DNA from: Funneliformis mosseae
Taxonomy: Eukaryota > Glomeromycota > Glomeromycetes > Glomerales > Glomeraceae
Reading direction: 5' to 3'
Length of the DNA: 13,537 nucleotides
Assembly: GCA_910592005.1 (NCBI GenBank)
Contig: CAJVPP010002782.1
Location: 1-13,537, forward strand
The translations under genes were made by a program, and so were the position numbers. Positions within the stretch are counted from its first letter, which is position 1. Each line of letters starts with the position of its first letter. The notes under the pieces are model-generated. The model searched no databases. It had not been told where the DNA came from and saw only the letters and a list, made by a program, of their open reading frames with translations. Below are positions 3,521 to 13,470 of this stretch, one piece after another.

Positions 3521-5983
3521 ATGCCTGAAATCCAATCCGCCATTGCTGCAACGCCTGATGCATTAAATGGGGCAGTTGAAATCGTGAATTCAGTGGTAAC
3601 GATTGGCGATGCGTTAAATATAGCAAAAGGAACCTTACAATGCATCGGTACCGCGGCGGATGCAATTACCCCTTTTATTCCATTGATAGGTGCAGCGACT
3701 ACGATTATTAGCGATATTATCATCATTTACCAACAAGCAGCATACAATAAAAAGATTGTTAGCGCTTTATATGATAGAACGAGATATGCAGAACTCGCCA
3801 TTGAAACTTTGCAACGACGTAAGAAATTACATGAAAAAGATTTTAGAAGTCAAGAATGGTATGATGCATTTAATCGTTTCGTTGACGTTTTAAAGGAAAT
3901 TAGAACTTTTGCCAAAGAAGTTTCATGTCTTCGTGGATATAAAAAGTATTTTAAAAGTTTTACCGTTAAAGAGCGATTTGAAGCTCTCACCAATTCTTAT
4001 GACGTCGTTATGAAAGATTTAAACTTTACTATGGCTGTTGCAAACGAAGAACAAAGACGATATGATAACGAATGTTTAATGGATGATGTTTCTGAAATGA
4101 GCAAAGTAAGTCTTTTTTTTTTTTTTTTTTTTTTAGAAAATTAACATTTTTCTTCTTGCTTGAAAGGATTTTATTTTATTTACTATTTTCCTTTTTGCAG
4201 TTTCTTCAAACAATCGAAGGTGGTATCGTGACCAATGACAATAAGCTTAATATTGTTCTTGAAGAGTTAAGACTTATGAAAATCAGCATAGACAGCGGGA
4301 AAGGACCGATTGCAATGGCCAAACAAATAGAGGAAAATGAGATAACGGATCCTTATATCAATGAACCAACTGATTATCGTGGTAGCAACAGACATATTAT
4401 AAGAAGGCAGTATAAGACAACCATAGAAGTAGCATGCAAACCTTTCGAATTAAATAAGGATGATAAAGAAGAATATAAGAAAAAACAAGGTCAACTCGCC
4501 ATTTTATCCAAATTATCCGAATGCACAAATATTCTTAAATTCTATGGGCTAGCGAATTTAAATGGGCAGAATCACATGATATTAGAGTGGGCTCACTATG
4601 GTAACTTGAGAGAGGTATATGAAGACTATGATATACCTTGGATGAGGAAATTACATATTGCGACCGATATATGTCGAGCCATCACTTTCTTGCAATCTGT
4701 GGATATTTTTCATCACGATTTGCGATGCGAGAACGTCATGTTGACAAGGAATTTAGAACCGAAACTTACAAACTTTGAATATGCTCGTTCCAAAAATGCT
4801 TCAACCTCTTCAATTGGTGATTTAATGAAAATAGTTCATTGGTTAGCTCCTGAAAAAATGCGCGACAGAAGTACACGATACAATATTAAATGCGAAATTT
4901 TCAGGTATAATATTTAAATAATATGAAAGTTTTAGAAAAGGTTTAAAGAGTGTTTTTAACTAACATGTTTCTCTCTTGACTTTTAACTTATAGCTTTGGG
5001 ATGTTACTTTGGGAATTAACTTTTGAAAAAACTCCATATCAAGGATGGGAAGTGGAAAGAGTGGAAACCCACGTAAAAGCAGGAAAGAGAGAAAAAATTA
5101 CATTTGGACCTGTTGCTGATGACCGGGAATTAGAAATTCAAAAAGTATTAGAAGAAGTTATAACAGGAGGTATGTATTGGTTTGATACGTATTTGCTGAT
5201 TTATTACGAATTTAGACAGGTTATTAATTATCATTTTTTTTTTTTTCCTTTGTAAATTATAAAGCATGGAAAGCAAATCCTGAAGAAAGAATTTCGCTTG
5301 TTAAACTATTTAATACACTTGAAAAATTACAATCCGAAAATAAAAATTTAATGGAACAAGGTTGTAATTCAAATTTACTTCCACAAAAATCATTGGATTT
5401 GGATGGGTCAAGCACACCTCCACCACCACCAGATAGTGACGCGGATGCGGAATTACCCGAATTCGAGGATTTCTCGCTTGATTGTGGAATAATAACAGTA
5501 ATTTCATTTGAAGAAGGGGTAAAAGCACATAAGGATGGCAAATATGATAAAGCTTGGGAATGTTTCGAATATCATGCAGATAATGGAAATGCAAATGCAA
5601 AATATTGGATGGCTTACTATTTATGGGAAGGAAAGTTTGTAGAAAAAAATTGTGAAGAAGCTGCAAAATTATTTAAGGAGGCTGCTGATCAAGGCATTCC
5701 TGATGCACAACTTCGCTACGCATTCACATTTCAAACTAAGCTAGGTAAGAAAAAGTATCGAGAAGAATTCATTAAATATTTAACTTTGGCGGCTGATGGA
5801 GGAAATCAATCCGCTCAATATAATTTGGGGGATGTTTACTTTAATAAAAAATTAATGATGGGTGATAAGCAAAAAGGAATTTATTATTTAAAATTAGCTG
5901 CCTTGCAAAATCATCCAAATGCAATTAAAATGTTGGAAAAACATAATATAAGTTTTGCCGATGGACCAAAATTAGAACATTAG
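3521..5983 (+). CDS. gene A: four-helix-bundle (MLKL/HeLo-like) - pseudokinase - Sel1 repeat protein
   Basis: Proposed exons are 3521-4105, 4201-4904, 4994-5169 and 5265-5983, which join in frame to 727 residues. The ATG has A at -3. Residues 1-195 form a helical domain with a hydrophobic stretch at about 42-70 and the signature YNKK at 75-78, resembling the MLKL N-terminal/HeLo-like bundle. About 196-250 is a linker. The kinase domain covers roughly 250-516: VACK lysine K275, HHDLRCEN at 366-373 (catalytic-loop D368 and N373 kept), NFE at 386-388 where DFG is expected, and APE at 411-413. There is no GxGxxG loop, and the alpha-C glutamate position appears to be Gln. A Pro-rich acidic linker (PPPPP at 540-544) leads to three full and one partial Sel1 repeats (about 569-717). 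Known: bundle plus pseudokinase in MLKL executes necroptosis at membranes, and Sel1 repeats bind proteins. Inferred: a regulated cell-death or immune protein. Alternatively it could be a signalling scaffold without killing activity. Gene B, convergent 1.4 kb away, is a paralogue. Confidence 0.85.
4106..4200 (+). other. gene A intron 1 (domain-boundary intron, phase 0)
   Basis: Donor GTAAGT, acceptor TTTTTGCAG, 95 bp, with a run of 22 T at 4113-4134. It falls after residue 195, at the end of the helical bundle. If it were retained, translation would stop at 4142-4144 and give a 207-residue protein that is essentially the bundle alone. Confidence 0.85.
4905..4993 (+). other. gene A intron 2 (phase 2)
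   Basis: Donor GTATAA, acceptor CTTATAG, 89 bp. Removing it restores CEIFSFGMLLWEL, the conserved kinase segment after APE, which gene B encodes without an intron. Read-through would hit a stop at 4915-4917. Confidence 0.85.
5170..5264 (+). other. gene A intron 3 (phase 1)
   Basis: Donor GTATGT, T-rich tract, acceptor TATAAAG, 95 bp. Splicing rebuilds an Ala codon followed by WKANPEERISL, matching the AWQQEPSLRP segment of gene B and the usual kinase alpha-H region (cWxxdPxxRP). Gene B has no intron here. Confidence 0.82.
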
Positions 5984-6031
5984 ATATATGATTACATTTT
6001 TTCATAGTTGTACATTTTTTAAAAAATTATA

Positions 6032-6046
6032 AATAAAAGTAATAAA
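6032..6046 (+). promoter_or_regulatory. gene A polyadenylation signals
   Basis: Two AATAAA hexamers, at 6032-6037 and 6041-6046, lie 50-60 bases after the gene A stop codon, a normal distance for a fungal 3' untranslated region. AATAAA is common by chance in DNA this AT-rich. Confidence 0.45.
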
Positions 6047-6630
6047 AAGAACAAAATTTTAATATATAACAATATCTGTGTTCTGAACAATGAATAGGTT
6101 ATGATTTATGCGCCCTCCCTAACTTTCAGCCATTTTGTGTGTATATTTATTTTAAATACCCCTTGCAATTTTAATCTCATCTTTTGGAAAAAAAAAAAAT
6201 ATCTAGGAGTATAATATTACTTGTGTACACCGATCATCACCTCATACAAGATAGGACCCCTACATATTCTTTCGGACAAAAGACTAAAATATTTAATTAC
6301 TGACTGACAATGCAAATCTGTTTTTTTTTAATTAAAAAAAAAAGATGAAATTTGATTGGTCTAAATATATATGATGATTTAATCTTTTTAACGTACGTTT
6401 CACTTTATACGACAAAAAGCACGTGAATTGAATTGCGATAATTGCTTTATAAATTAATCACGAAATTTATATTAGATAATGTGATTATTAAACATGAGGA
6501 TCGTCAGAGACATTAAAAGATTTTTAAATAACGCTTTCTCTTTTATTACAACGAAAGTTTAAGTACCGCGAACCTAGTTTCATGAACATATGGCATTACG
6601 GAAACACGTATTTCTCGTTTCTAGGTATCG

Positions 6631-6646
6631 TTTATCACGTGATAAA
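6631..6646. repeat. 16-bp perfect palindrome with CACGTG core
   Basis: TTTATCACGTGATAAA is a perfect inverted repeat. CACGTG is the classic site of basic helix-loop-helix factors (Pho4/Cbf1 type). The inner ATCACGTGAT recurs exactly at 1881-1890. Its position between convergent 3' ends does not suit an ordinary promoter element, so a role is uncertain. Confidence 0.4.
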
Positions 6647-7424
6647 GCTTTAACAAAGAAATCACAGAACTACAAAAACTACTATTAATGAATTATTGTA
6701 GTTAGAAGTTACATCTATCTCCCGAAGAACTATTCCATTTAATAATATTTATGTCAAGTTTGCAATACCATCAATTTTTTTTTTTTTTTGCAAATTGCAA
6801 ATTGTTAAATCCAAAATCGCGACTATTTACGCGTGACATTAAATCTGCAAAAAAATCTCTTGTATATTTGATTTTGTTTTTCATTCTTTGCATTTACTTT
6901 TTTGATTGTAACAAGAGCAAAAGATTGTCTTTTAATTATGCCTTATAAACGAATTAAAATTACCAGAGTAACGCAAAAAAGTTTAATCTATAATAACGGT
7001 CAATCAAACGGTTGACTAACAGGCCGTCCAGGGATTGGTAATTTGGCATACCAGAATTAAATCAAAGAACGATGTACGCATTTTAAATTTAATAAATATA
7101 TGATTTCTAAAATCAACCTCCTATTAAATTCGCACAAATAATTAAACATTTTTAACGATATTTGATGAAGAAACATGAATGTACTGTATAAGGTTAAAAA
7201 CTAACGCATCTTTTTAAGGTAATTGGAAATCATTTTGATAATTAAAGACTAATTTTTTGAAGAACAGGTGTTTATTAGGAAAAAGTTCTTGTGTAAAATA
7301 ATAGTAACAATAATTACGACCTGAATATTAATACGAATATTTTTTTTTTTAATGTAAATCATATCGATATAATCATACAAAGAACTGAATACATATAAAT
7401 CTAAAATGACAACAAATAATATTT

Positions 7425-9867
7425 TCATTCATATATATTTATATTATGTTTTTTCAAAATTTCTACTGCTTTAGACTGACCAAACAAACAAGCTTGTCTT
7501 AAATATTTAATACCTTTTTGTGTATCCTTTTCAAAATTAAGTTTACCTGAAAAATATACATCGCCAAGGTTATAAAGAGCGGTAGCATTATTATTATCAG
7601 CTGCCATTTTTAAATATTCCATGAACTTTCTACTATCAATATTTTGATTTTCTTTATCAATTAAACAAAATGCATATCGTAATTGAGCATCAGCATTACC
7701 CGCATCCGCCGCCTCCTTAAATAATTCCATGGCACGTTTCTTGTTTTTTTCTACATGCCTGCCTTCCAGATAATAATACCCGCACCAATATTTTGCCAAT
7801 ATATCTCCTACTTCGGCGTTCCCTTTGAAACATCCCCAAGCCTTTTCATATTCATGTGCTTTGTGAGCTTGTAAACCTTCTTTGACCGTAAGTAATGGTG
7901 TAACTGGTGTAGAAATAGAAAAATTATCATCAGGGATACTTAAGTCTTGTTGGTCATCATCTTCACAACGTACTATCGGAGAAATTATATTTAATATATA
8001 TTTCTGAAATAATTCATTCATCATATTGAAGAGAAGTTGAATTCCTGGACGTAATGATGGTTCTTGTTGCCAAGCGAGCTTAATAATTTCACCATATCCA
8101 ACTTGAAGTGGATTTTGGGTTAATCCAAATTCCAATGTTTCCCTACCACCTTTGGAAACATATTTTTGAATGTCCACCATAGTCATTTTTTCGTATGGTA
8201 TTTTTTCAAAGGCAAGTTCCCAAAGGAGCATTCCAAAACTGAAAATTTCACATTGAATAGTATATCTAGCTTCTTGTTTTTTATTAGAACTTTTCGGATC
8301 ACGATCATAACTGTTTAACTTTTCTGGTGCTAACCAATGTATTATAGCATTCATATCATCGATCTGACTGGTAACTTCGTTAATTTCACGAGCAAATTTG
8401 AAATTACAAAGTTTGGGTTGCATTTTCTCAGTCATTAACACGTTTTCGCATCGAATATCATGGTGCAAAATTTCCACTGTAGATTTAAATGTGTAATTAA
8501 GGTTAATTTTGAGCGTACATTATGAAAACTTTTTGATTAAAAATCATCACCTGCATGTAAAAAGGCTAATCCACGACAGATATCTCTTACAATAGTAATC
8601 TTTTCCTCCCATCCAAGACTAAAATTCTGATAAACTTCTTTTAAAGTTCCTAGTTCCGCCCATTCAAAAACCATTACATAATTTTTTTCAGATAATTCTG
8701 ATACTCCATGAAATTTAATAATATATGGACAAGCGTGTAACTTTCCCAAAATAGCAAGATGTTTCTGAATTTTTTGCATATTATTCGTAGCAATCGGTTT
8801 GCAAGCAACATCCAATGCGGTAAAACTTTTTTTTAGAACTGTTACTCTGTTGCCTTTACGTAGAACGACGTCTTGCGCATCACGAATTTCTGAAGGTTTG
8901 ATTCTTTTAGCTTCTACTTGTAAAGAATTTTGTCCATTTACTTGTTTGCTGAATGAAGAGATGGAATCAATTTCTTCATTGAGCGAACCGAAACTAAGTG
9001 ATATATGTCCATCTTTAAATCCTAAAAGCTGTTTGTTTTGTTCTAAAATTTTGTCATTTTGTTGTTGAATATTTTCAACTATAATCTTAATTTCGTTATT
9101 TTCGTTAAGGATATGAGTAGTAGTTTCCTTGATTTCATCGGTTTTATTTTCAATAGATGTAACACCGCCTTCAATATCATCCAAAAACTTTATGTAATTT
9201 AAAGAACATGGATTAATTTAACTATTAAATTATTTTTTAAAAAAGTCTTTGCAAATACAATAATATTACATACCTTTTTCATTGCAACAATATCATTTTG
9301 TAAAATTGTAAAGTCCTTATCCATTTGTTCTTTTGTGGCAATAGAAATTGCCAAATTCAAAATATCGGAACATTCATTAAATTCTCCGATAACCTTTTCA
9401 AATTTATCTTTAATATCCCCGCTTGTGAAAAATTTTTTAAATTTCGATAAATTAGAAATTTCAACACAAAATTTCTTAATTTGTTTTAAACAATTTACAA
9501 ATTTTTGAAAAGAGTCATAATAACTTTGTTTACGAAAGTTTTCAAGATTATCTTCCGATTGTCTCATTAATGCTTTAATGGCAGTTTCGGCGGCTTCAAC
9601 TCGGTTAACTAATATACCGCAAGTTCTTTTATTATATTGAACATTTTCATATACTTCTACTATTTCTTTTACCAAACCTGATACAATAGATACAAAAGGT
9701 AGGTAAGGACCAACAGCATCTGCAAGGTTCCCCATAACTTTAATGGTCTCTTTGGCTAATTCGCCAGTAAAACGTCTTTCTCCTGCAAATTGACCCACTT
9801 CATGTATTATTTCAGCACTTGAAGCAATTACTACCGACGCTCCTCCAATGTTTTTTGACATCGACAT
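7425..9867 (-). CDS. gene B: four-helix-bundle (MLKL/HeLo-like) - coiled coil - pseudokinase - Sel1 repeat protein
   Basis: Proposed exons in transcription order are 9867-9274, 9187-8551 and 8476-7425, joining in frame to 760 residues; the stop is TGA. The ATG at 9867 has A at -3; a second ATG two codons later is an alternative start. Residues 1-198 form the helical bundle, with a hydrophobic stretch at about 44-73 and YNKR at 78-81, nearly the same offset as in gene A. Residues 199-255 are rich in E/N/K/I heptads and predict a coiled coil, a possible brace. The kinase domain is about 305-570: VACK lysine K328, HHDIRCEN at 415-422 (D417, N422), NFK at 435-437 in place of DFG, APE at 460-462, and no glycine-rich loop. 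Sel1 repeats cover about 608-757. Over one 57-residue Sel1 stretch I count 34 identities with gene A; the bundle is more diverged. Likely an MLKL-like pseudokinase acting at membranes when triggered (inference). An adaptor function without membrane activity is the main alternative. Confidence 0.85.
8477..8550 (-). other. gene B intron 2 (phase 1)
   Basis: Donor GTGATG, acceptor ATCTACAG, 74 bp. Splicing rebuilds a Val codon in FLHAVEILHHDIRCEN, which lines up with FLQSVDIFHHDLRCEN of gene A. Gene A has no intron at this site. The donor is weaker than the others in the window, but the alignment supports it. Confidence 0.82.
9188..9273 (-). other. gene B intron 1 (domain-boundary intron, phase 0)
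   Basis: Donor GTATGT, acceptor ACATAAAG, 86 bp. It follows residue 198 and is followed by FLDDIEGG, which matches FLQTIEGG after intron 1 of gene A, so position and phase are conserved. Retention would give a 222-residue protein made of the bundle plus a short tail, with the stop at 9199-9201. Confidence 0.85.
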
Positions 9868-10537: not shown

Positions 10538-12079
10538 ACTAATTTACAAATTAATAATTTATATATAAAATTATATTATATTTTTATTAAAATATAATAA
10601 AGTTAATCAAAAAAAAATCAATATATAATTATAAAAGTAATTTTAATTAAACTAAAAACTTTAAATTAATTATTAATAATTAAATAAAAATTATTAAATA
10701 GCATTTATTAAACTAATTTTTAAATTTATAATTATTTTAAGAAATAATTTATTTATCTCATGTGTGTAATGTATCACTTCCTTTTGTTACCTATATTACA
10801 TTCCCTCACTTTTTTATTTTTTTTCATATATATTATATATTCTGAAGATTGAGAAATTTTTTTATTAAAAAAATCTATTCTTTACACTCATATTAAATAT
10901 CACATGTTTTAATTTTATCTGATTTTATCTAGAAGTAATATATTATATATACAATAAAAAAATTTACTCTTATTTTAATATTATAAGTTTTTATATATTA
11001 TATTTAATAAAATATAATAATATATATTTATAATCTTATATAATAAAAAAATATTTGTATAATTATTAATATTAGAATATTATATAAATAATTTAAATCT
11101 TTTTTTTAATAAAAATTTTTTAATATCTAAAATTAAATAAATAAATTTGTATTATATTAATATTAATATAATAATTAAAATATAACTAATTTTAGTTCTA
11201 ACAAAGTATATTTGATAGAAAATGATAATTATTTTTTTATCATTATTTTTATTAAAATTAGATATAGTAGGACAAAAATTTATTATATATAATAAATGTA
11301 CTGATCAATAAACTATATATTATATTAAAAATAAACTTAAATTTAGAATAAATAAATAAGTTATATTACATTAACCAATAAATTTCTTAAAAAATAAAAT
11401 ATTCTCAATAGTATATTTTGCTAGTCTGTGATCAAATGTGATCAAAATTATCTGAATATAAAAAGAAAGATGCATTTAAAATTAATAAAATATTTAGTAA
11501 ACTAATAAAATTAATATTTCAAATTAAAGAAATTTAAAACATAAAAAAAGTAAAAAAAGAATTACAATATTTTGAAAATCTTTACCATTTTTTTAGTTTA
11601 TTATCAGATAATAGTAGAAATATAATATATTTATAAAATATTAAGAGATATAAATTTATAATATATAAAATAATAAATTATTTGATTATATAGTCTAATG
11701 CAAAAAGTTTGATATATCAATATGTTCATAGCAAAAAAATAAAATTTTAAATTTAATATAAACATTTAAATATTTTTATTTATTACATGGGATATTTATT
11801 ATTAAAATTGAGTTACAAATATAGTAAATTATATAATCTGTAATGTGATTTTAATAGCTTATCTCCCATATAAGTTTTAAGGAATATTTTAATGTAAATT
11901 TTATTAAAATATAAAATTTCTATAAAAAATTTTATTAATTGTTAATTTCCTTAATTTCAGAATCCTCATAATCACTTTCAGCCAGTGTTGGCATATGACC
12001 TTATCATTTAGCTTAAAATATGACCTTTTGTCATTTGGTCATATGACTGATGGTCATTTTGTCATTTGTCATAAAATTA
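10538..12079. other. extremely AT-rich, CpG-free block
   Basis: Reading line by line I find no CG dinucleotide anywhere in this stretch of about 1.5 kb, and G or C bases are scarce. There is no supportable open frame on either strand, only short A/T runs and ATATAT stretches. It looks like strongly decayed non-coding DNA, possibly old transposon sequence that lost CpG by deamination. I see no terminal repeats or recognisable protein fragments in it. Its right end overlaps the GTCAT-rich block that starts at 11983. Confidence 0.6.
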
Positions 12080-12257: not shown

Positions 12258-13470
12258 TTTAACGTTTTTAACATCAGAGATGACGTTCCGAACATTGGAG
12301 ACGTTAAAATATTGCAAAATTGCAATAAATTTGACGTTCCAAACGTCAAAAGTGTCAAATGTTGTAAAATTGCAATAAAATTTAACGTTTCAAATGTTGG
12401 AGGCGTCAAATGTTGCAAAATTGCAATAAAATTTGACGTTCTGAATGTTGGAAGCGTCAAATGTTGCAAAATTGCAATAAAATTTGACGTTCTAAATATC
12501 GGAGGCGTCAAATATTGCAAAATTGCAATAAAATTTGACATTCTGAATGTCGAAGACGTCAAATATTATAAAATTGCAATAAAATTTGACGTTCTGAACG
12601 TTGAAGGCGTCAAATATTGCAAAATTGTAATAAATTTGACGTTCTAAACGTCATAAGCATCAAATATTGCAAAATTGCAATAAAATTTGACATTCCGAAC
12701 GTCAGAGGCATCAAATATTGCAAAATTGCAATAAAATTTGACGTTCTAAACGTCAGAGGCGTCAAATATTGCAAAATTGCAATAAAATTTGACGTTCTGA
12801 ACATTGGAGGCGTCAAATATTGCAAAATTGCAATAAATTTGACGTTCCAAATGTTGGAGGCGTCAAATATTGCAAAATTGCAATAAAATTTGACGTTCTG
12901 AACATCAGAGGCGTCAAATATTGCAAAATTGCAATAAATTTGACGTTCCAAATGTTAAAGGCGTCAAATATTGCAAAATTGCAATAAAATTTGACGTTCT
13001 GAACGTCAGAGGCGTCAAATATTGCAAAATTGCAATAAAATTTGACGTCCTGAACGTCAAAGACGTCAAATATTGCAAAATTGCAATAAAATTTGACGTT
13101 CTAAATGTCAGAGACGTCAAAATATTGCAAAATTACAATAAATTTAACGTTCCAAATGTCAGAAGCGTCAAATGTTGCAAAATTGCAATAAAATTTGACA
13201 TTCTGAATGTTGGAAGTGTCGAAATATTGCAATTTTGCAATAAATTTGATGTTCCAGACATTAAGGCATCAAAATATTACAATTTTGCAATAAATTCAAC
13301 ATTCTGAATGTCAGAGACATCAAAATATTGCAATTTGCAATATTTTGACGTTTCTGATATCCAGAACATTAAAACTATCAATAAATTTAATGTCTCAAAG
13401 TTGGAGGCGACAATTTTGTAATAAATTGAATGTTCCGTACGTCAGAGGCGTTAATTTTTGCATTTTTGCA
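12258..13470. repeat. 51-bp satellite array, about 23 units
   Basis: The motif GCAAAATTGC or a close variant recurs at 12314, 12364, 12415, 12466, 12517, 12568, 12619, 12669, 12720, 12771, 12822, 12872, 12923, 12973, 13024, 13075, 13127, 13177, 13229, 13279 and 13330. The period is 51 bases, with some 50- and 52-base units. Two worn units follow to about 13470. Each unit holds TTGCAA-AA-TTGCAA, then an AT stretch, then a hairpin of the GACGTT-CTG-AACGTC type, then a G/A-rich segment and GCGTC. Because 51 is divisible by three, long repetitive open frames appear on both strands with a 17-residue period; I treat these as by-products and not genes. Units in the middle are most alike; edge units are worn. 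Confidence 0.92.

What the first reader, a model, noticed from the sequence alone, without database searches (positions are those of the whole stretch)
3521..9867. Convergent pair of MLKL-like bundle / pseudokinase / Sel1 proteins: candidate fungal necroptosis-like module
Both genes encode the same unusual order: N-terminal helical bundle with a hydrophobic stretch and YNKK/R signature, a linker or coiled coil, a kinase domain lacking the DFG aspartate, and Sel1 repeats. Bundle plus pseudokinase is the MLKL plan known from animals and plants, and HeLo-like bundles drive cell death in filamentous fungi. The Sel1 tail would add a protein-binding or sensing scaffold. Two diverged copies, tail to tail 1.4 kb apart, suggest a locus under diversification such as non-self recognition between nuclei or hyphae, or symbiosis-linked immunity. 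The architecture is seen; the function is inferred.
Basis: partly seen in the sequence, partly recalled or inferred. Interest (0 to 1): 0.75.

Follow-up and report, generated by a model that had tools for sequence, protein, structure and literature searches.

The report
Fungal MLKL-like (necroptosis-type) gene pair
Two neighbouring genes of an arbuscular mycorrhizal fungus encode proteins built like MLKL, the animal executioner of necroptosis (a membrane-attacking helical bundle plus a dead kinase), with a Sel1 repeat tail; they belong to a large, old family of these fungi, some members of which also carry a live kinase on the same chain.

The parts
3521..5983 (+). Gene A, 727 aa, exons 3521-4105, 4201-4904, 4994-5169, 5265-5983
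   Evidence: spliced frame, GT-AG introns; same length and 99.2% identity to annotated P0024
3641..4105 (+). A: MLKL-like helical bundle and start of brace, residues 41-195
   Evidence: homology to B's bundle at E 6e-30; Pfam MLKL_N 14.4 bits, below cut-off; limits from the family HMM, which was built with A in it
4399..5329 (+). A: pseudokinase, residues 262-510 (two introns inside)
   Evidence: Pfam PF07714 E 2e-33; limits from the family HMM
4771..4779 (+). A: NFE in place of DFG
4804..4806 (+). A: Thr397, activation-loop position that is Ser or Thr in 47 of 48 readable family rows, candidate phosphosite
5501..5944 (+). A: Sel1 repeats, residues 568-715
7425..9867 (-). Gene B, 760 aa, exons 9867-9274, 9187-8551, 8476-7425
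   Evidence: spliced frame, GT-AG introns; 81% identical to P0001 of F. geosporum over 721 columns
9274..9741 (-). B: MLKL-like helical bundle and brace helix, residues 43-198
   Evidence: Pfam MLKL_N 39.5 bits over cut-off 27; AlphaFold2 model best matched by MLKL
8010..8833 (-). B: pseudokinase, residues 317-566 (one intron inside)
8397..8405 (-). B: NFK in place of DFG
8370..8372 (-). B: Thr446, aligned with A Thr397
   Evidence: alignment of A and B; column counts
7446..7889 (-). B: Sel1 repeats, residues 607-754
5984..7424 (.). AT-rich spacer between the two genes; among ATG-started ORFs of 60 aa or more only one, of 65 aa

Best explanation
A and B are MLKL-type proteins of a glomeromycotinan family. 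SHOWN: an MLKL-like four-helix bundle (predicted fold, profile homology) whose first helix is hydrophobic, a predicted helix at the brace position, then a kinase domain that lost the metal-binding DFG aspartate but kept an activation-loop Ser/Thr, then Sel1 repeats; in relatives an intact kinase is fused to the same module. INFERRED: the pseudokinase is a switch, not an enzyme. At rest it and the brace hold the bundle soluble. A signal gathered through the Sel1 scaffold brings in an active kinase (fused in some relatives, in trans for A and B), which phosphorylates the activation loop; the bundle is freed, oligomerises, and inserts into or permeabilises a membrane, killing or sealing off a hyphal compartment. 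A and B, old linked paralogues, may form hetero-oligomers or answer to different kinases; the trigger is unknown.
Confidence: 0.55

Rival explanations
1. Non-lethal membrane-recruited scaffold: the bundle targets or oligomerises the protein at a membrane and the dead kinase and Sel1 repeats assemble signalling partners, for example in perception of plant or environment, without killing.
For: Kinase, Sel1 and similar genes are hugely expanded in R. irregularis and have been proposed to act in perception of and interaction with the environment (PMC8647823, passages); 42 bundle matches in this genome are many for a lethal device; A is nearly unchanged between two species.
Against: The nearest characterised relatives of the bundle by profile and fold are MLKL executioner domains (function of MLKL from PMC12881547 and PMC10197012, passages).
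Confidence: 0.27
2. The kinase domain is an unconventional active kinase, and the bundle only regulates it.
For: HRD Asp kept in 51 of 53 and VAxK Lys in 46 of 56 readable rows; 6 of 32 genomic ones keep the DFG glycine; Pm13, a wheat MLKL-type protein, has all key catalytic residues (PMC10951266, passages).
Against: DFG Asp absent in 53 of 53 and 32 of 32 readable cases; DFG Gly kept in 1 of 53 family rows; the Lys is I, V or R in 10 of 56.
Confidence: 0.1
3. A generic helical bundle unrelated to MLKL; the resemblance is the common four-helix arrangement.
Against: Sequence profile hits in two independent libraries point to MLKL; the alignment-based model puts MLKL first; the order bundle - dead kinase is the same.
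Confidence: 0.05
4. The pair is a fast-evolving allorecognition (heterokaryon incompatibility) locus.
For: HeLo/MLKL-type bundles act in fungal allorecognition (PMC12881547 and PMC10197012, passages); two linked, diverged paralogues.
Against: Both lineages are shared between genera; A is 99.2% identical between two species with no change in bundle residues 40-195; no population data.
Confidence: 0.08

Closest known systems
MLKL of animals (Pfam PF22215 bundle, brace, pseudokinase)
   Same: bundle fold and profile; order bundle - brace - pseudokinase; phosphorylatable loop in the pseudokinase (MLKL: PMC12881547, passages). That MLKL also lost DFG and kept the VAxK Lys is recalled
   Different: stretch before the bundle in A and B, Sel1 tail, HRD Asp mostly kept, no RIPK3 or RHIM known
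Plant MLKLs (AtMLKL2/3; wheat Pm13)
   Different: no Sel1 (recalled); Pm13's kinase keeps the catalytic residues (PMC10951266, passages)
MLKL homologues of Glomeromycotina listed under TCDB 1.A.105 in PMC8778642
   Same: same group of fungi, MLKL homology, Sel1 repeats (passages): very probably this family
   Different: there listed among uncharacterised transporters; no analysis of DFG loss, fold, lineages or kinase fusions in the passages seen
Fungal HeLo, HELL and basidiomycete MLKL-like domains of NLRs
   Same: same superfamily of bundles (PMC9815663, PMC12881547, passages); the latter also says some HELL domains sit on kinase/pseudokinase proteins
   Different: there mostly on NLRs or amyloid-controlled effectors; no Pfam HeLo-type profile hit here
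RIPK3-MLKL necrosome; plant tandem kinase-pseudokinase proteins
   Same: live kinase coupled to a pseudokinase (fused relatives)
   Different: in animals two separate proteins; plant tandem kinases carry no MLKL bundle (recalled)

Membership tests
MLKL | N-terminal MLKL-type four-helix bundle by sequence | tested here: met
   B over Pfam cut-off, profile of 33 bundles has MLKL chains first; A alone is below cut-off
MLKL | MLKL-like fold of the bundle | tested here: met
MLKL | brace helix joining bundle and pseudokinase | tested here: inconclusive
   helix 179-197 predicted after the bundle, alignment reaches MLKL residue 150; full-length protein was not folded
MLKL | kinase domain without the DFG aspartate | tested here: met
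   A NFE, B NFK; 53 of 53 readable family rows and 32 of 32 readable genomic cases
MLKL | activation-loop phosphorylation by an upstream kinase | not testable with these tools
   acceptor residue S or T in 47 of 48 readable rows; phosphorylation itself needs an experiment
MLKL | membrane permeabilisation and cell death | not testable with these tools
   needs liposome or cell assays
HeLo / HELL (fungal NLR effectors) | match to a Pfam HeLo-type profile | tested here: not met
   no such family among the 6 and 14 Pfam matches up to E 1 for A and B
Allorecognition (het) locus | polymorphism maintained within species, incompatibility phenotype | not testable with these tools
   no population data; between species A is 99.2% identical
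Single-chain kinase-MLKL fusion (the window genes themselves) | catalytically intact kinase on the same chain | tested here: not met
   A and B have one kinase domain each, the one without DFG Asp; fusion occurs in relatives only

The most novel reading that the evidence does not exclude
Arbuscular mycorrhizal fungi own a complete, amplified necroptosis-like system: pure executioners such as A and B, and relatives in which the activating kinase and the MLKL-type executioner are one polypeptide (live kinase - bundle - dead kinase - Sel1, or with the live kinase at the C-terminal side), so that the RIPK3-to-MLKL step is intramolecular. Since both arrangements and both orders of fusion occur, kinase-to-pseudokinase signalling onto an MLKL bundle would be an old eukaryotic device kept or rebuilt in fungi, not an animal invention.
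Probability: 0.35. Interest if true: 0.85.

Novelty: new variant of a known kind. Interest (0 to 1): 0.6.

Why it matters
Where necroptosis came from, and whether its kinase-to-executioner step is older than animals, is open. A family of bundle - pseudokinase proteins in fungi, with natural fusions to an intact kinase, gives a direct test: does the fused kinase phosphorylate the dead one and free the bundle? It would also give these coenocytic, obligate plant symbionts a candidate mechanism for controlled death of hyphae or arbuscules, and explain part of their puzzling expansion of kinase and Sel1 genes.

Tried and rejected

Controls for DFG: 12 kinases first, read by a pattern (11 of 12 readable, 11 with Asp). 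The exception, at C146, has EVE and HGN; the one at C2146 has DVG but HGN. So pseudokinases occur outside the family too. All 20 still come from the 145 best of 1118 candidates.

Considered and dropped: secreted effector (no signal-peptide-like start by eye; no tool run); recent tandem duplication (tree); artefact of six-frame reading (introns and an independent annotation agree).

Literature: ten searches. I saw listings, plus passages found by term in seven papers; no paper was read whole. In what I saw nobody describes a live kinase fused to an MLKL bundle in fungi or analyses these pseudokinases. The library lacks most subscription papers, among them the pseudokinase survey cited in PMC10234402 (not held), so this is weak evidence of absence.

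Rows outside counts: 5 of 58 family rows lack the DFG column and 10 of 58 the loop column; the 12 proteins are not in the 58. Bundle loci without a readable downstream kinase (for example C1387, contig end; C443, none found) are outside the 32. The tree used 46 of the 58 rows (12 database rows, mostly partial or near-duplicate, left out), and P0043 and P0054 were trimmed to the bundle-pseudokinase part.

Full report
WHAT IS THERE. The window is contig C2782 of an 82-Mb, 4154-contig assembly. Two proteins annotated as Funneliformis mosseae (P0022, P0044) lie on contigs of 20351 and 36123 bases, the lengths of C1387 and C324 here, both of which hold family members, and the first 60 residues of the C324 bundle are found in P0044. 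The host is therefore very probably F. mosseae, an arbuscular mycorrhizal fungus (lineage). Genes A and B were spliced by hand at GT-AG sites: A 727 aa, B 760 aa, convergent, 1441 bases apart. A is matched in length and at 99.2% identity by an annotated F. caledonium protein, B at 81% over 721 columns by one of F. geosporum.

ARCHITECTURE. Both proteins: bundle (A 41-195, B 43-198), linker (short in A, about 100 residues in B), kinase domain (A 262-510, B 317-566), Sel1 repeats (A 568-715, B 607-754) (the limits come from family HMMs built with A and B in them). Pfam MLKL_N is over its cut-off in B and under it in A.

THE KINASE DOMAIN IS A PSEUDOKINASE BY FAMILY RULE. In the 58-row family alignment (A, B and 56 database proteins) the DFG aspartate column is N in 45, K in 8, gapped in 5; D in none. 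HRD Asp is kept in 51 of 53, VAxK Lys in 46 of 56. In this genome the kinase downstream of a bundle lacks the Asp in 32 of 32 readable distinct places, A and B included (30 N, 1 G, 1 K); 6 of the 32 keep the glycine. Controls: 20 kinases picked from the PF07714 list, six of them on contigs with Sel1 repeats: 19 of 20 keep the Asp, one does not, and one more lacks the HRD Asp. So the loss goes with the bundle, although other pseudokinases exist here. Within the dead kinase the activation-loop position A397 is S or T in 47 of 48 readable rows, one of three among 249 positions with at least 85% S/T.

HOW OLD AND WHERE. Three protein searches gave 68 relatives (23, 33 and 12); 65 carry an organism name and all 65 are fungi that I know as Glomeromycotina (Funneliformis, Rhizophagus, Glomus cerebriforme, Diversispora, Acaulospora, Scutellospora). 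The search reaches only near relatives, so it does not show absence elsewhere. In a tree of 46 rows, drawn with a midpoint root, A lies in a clade of 8 (100/100) with Funneliformis and Rhizophagus proteins, B in a clade of 20 (100/100) that also holds both; within that clade B's grouping with the R. clarus and R. irregularis proteins nearest to it is weak (89/69). In R. clarus one A-type (RclHR1_10730002) and two B-type proteins (…003, …004) have consecutive tags and one contig length. The pair thus looks like an old linked couple. A differs from its F. caledonium counterpart by 6 of 727 residues, none in bundle residues 40-195.

LIVE KINASE ON THE SAME CHAIN IN RELATIVES. In the loci held, five places have, upstream of the bundle on the same strand, a kinase with DFG Asp (5 of 5). 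At C3754 the end of that kinase (CWKDEPNERPN…) and the bundle share one 803-nt exon without stop, and the spliced model, seven GT-AG introns, reads intact kinase (GKGAYGKV, FALK, HRDLHASN, DFGLA) - linker - bundle - pseudokinase (HRDIRAEN, NFK) - Sel1. At C443 the kinase end and the bundle also share one open frame; no pseudokinase was found after it in the stretch held. The linkers stayed open in 1 and 2 of 5000 shuffles. At C1030, C3512 and C949 kinase and bundle lie in different frames: intron or separate gene, undecided. Annotated proteins agree: P0043 of Diversispora eburnea (kinase 28-290 with VALK, HKD and DLG, bundle 350-504, pseudokinase 573-822, Sel1 877-1025); P0067 of F. geosporum (kinase, Sel1, bundle, pseudokinase, Sel1); P0065 of F. 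geosporum (partial record: kinase fragment, Sel1, second kinase match 342-498 with HRD and DFG, bundle, pseudokinase, Sel1); and, with the live kinase at the C-terminal side, P0054 of R. clarus and P0057 of F. geosporum. Annotated fusions can be merged neighbours, P0065 and P0067 above all; the shared exon at C3754 and C443 is harder to explain away. Such fusions are the minority in this genome.

MECHANISM. Best explanation and rivals are given in their sections. Shown: homology, predicted fold, loss of the metal-binding residue, kept loop acceptor, fusion to an apparently intact kinase. Inferred: phosphorylation, release of the bundle, oligomerisation, membrane attack, and a role in death or sealing of hyphal compartments. 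A and B themselves have no second kinase, so their activator would act in trans; this genome has many kinases with intact motifs, some on Sel1-bearing contigs.

AGAINST WHAT IS KNOWN. PMC8778642 (passages) reports MLKL homologues, among the early-diverging fungi surveyed, exclusively in Glomeromycotina, with Sel1 repeats; PMC12881547 (passages) says some HELL domains sit on kinase/pseudokinase proteins; Pfam labels already stand on many of the relatives. The architecture is therefore not new. What I did not find in ten searches is the uniform loss of DFG Asp, the two old linked lineages and the fusion to a live kinase; the library is incomplete. Works like MLKL: likely. Member of the MLKL family: sequence, fold, order and DFG loss are met (A's own profile score is not); function, phosphorylation and brace remain untested or open.

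Noticed in passing
L049 121-3471 (G000:C3754), L023 1078-1866 (G000:C443): Kinase with intact catalytic motifs in one open exon with an MLKL-like bundle; in C3754 followed by pseudokinase and Sel1..
   Followed up: partly
P0054 (R. clarus), P0057 (F. geosporum): The intact kinase sits at the C-terminal side of the pseudokinase instead, so the fusion arose in more than one order..
   Followed up: partly
L026/L060 (C3512), L028/L057 (C301), L018/L037 (C864), P0057, P0033: Two bundle matches in a row before the pseudokinase..
   Followed up: no
L079 (G000:C146), L077 (G000:C2146): Kinase domains outside this family with HGN for HRD; L079 also lacks the DFG Asp (EVE): another candidate pseudokinase group..
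   Followed up: no
window 12281-13352: Minisatellite with a 51-base unit, about 20 copies, 85% match; the consensus unit holds TTGCAA twice..
   Followed up: no
window 10992-11194: AT-rich short tandem arrays (periods 14-31)..
   Followed up: no
P0022 (F. mosseae, contig of 20351 bases): About 750 residues before the bundle have no Pfam match at E 0.01; either an unknown domain or a merged gene..
   Followed up: no
G000:C949, C1265, C2301, C2849: 4 of 42 bundle matches hold in-frame stops, likely decayed copies or read across introns..
   Followed up: no
L016/P0045, L003/P0016, L031/P0024: Bundles of F. mosseae and F. caledonium are 99-100% identical at three loci, although no close F. caledonium counterpart of B was among the hits (best 49%)..
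   Followed up: no
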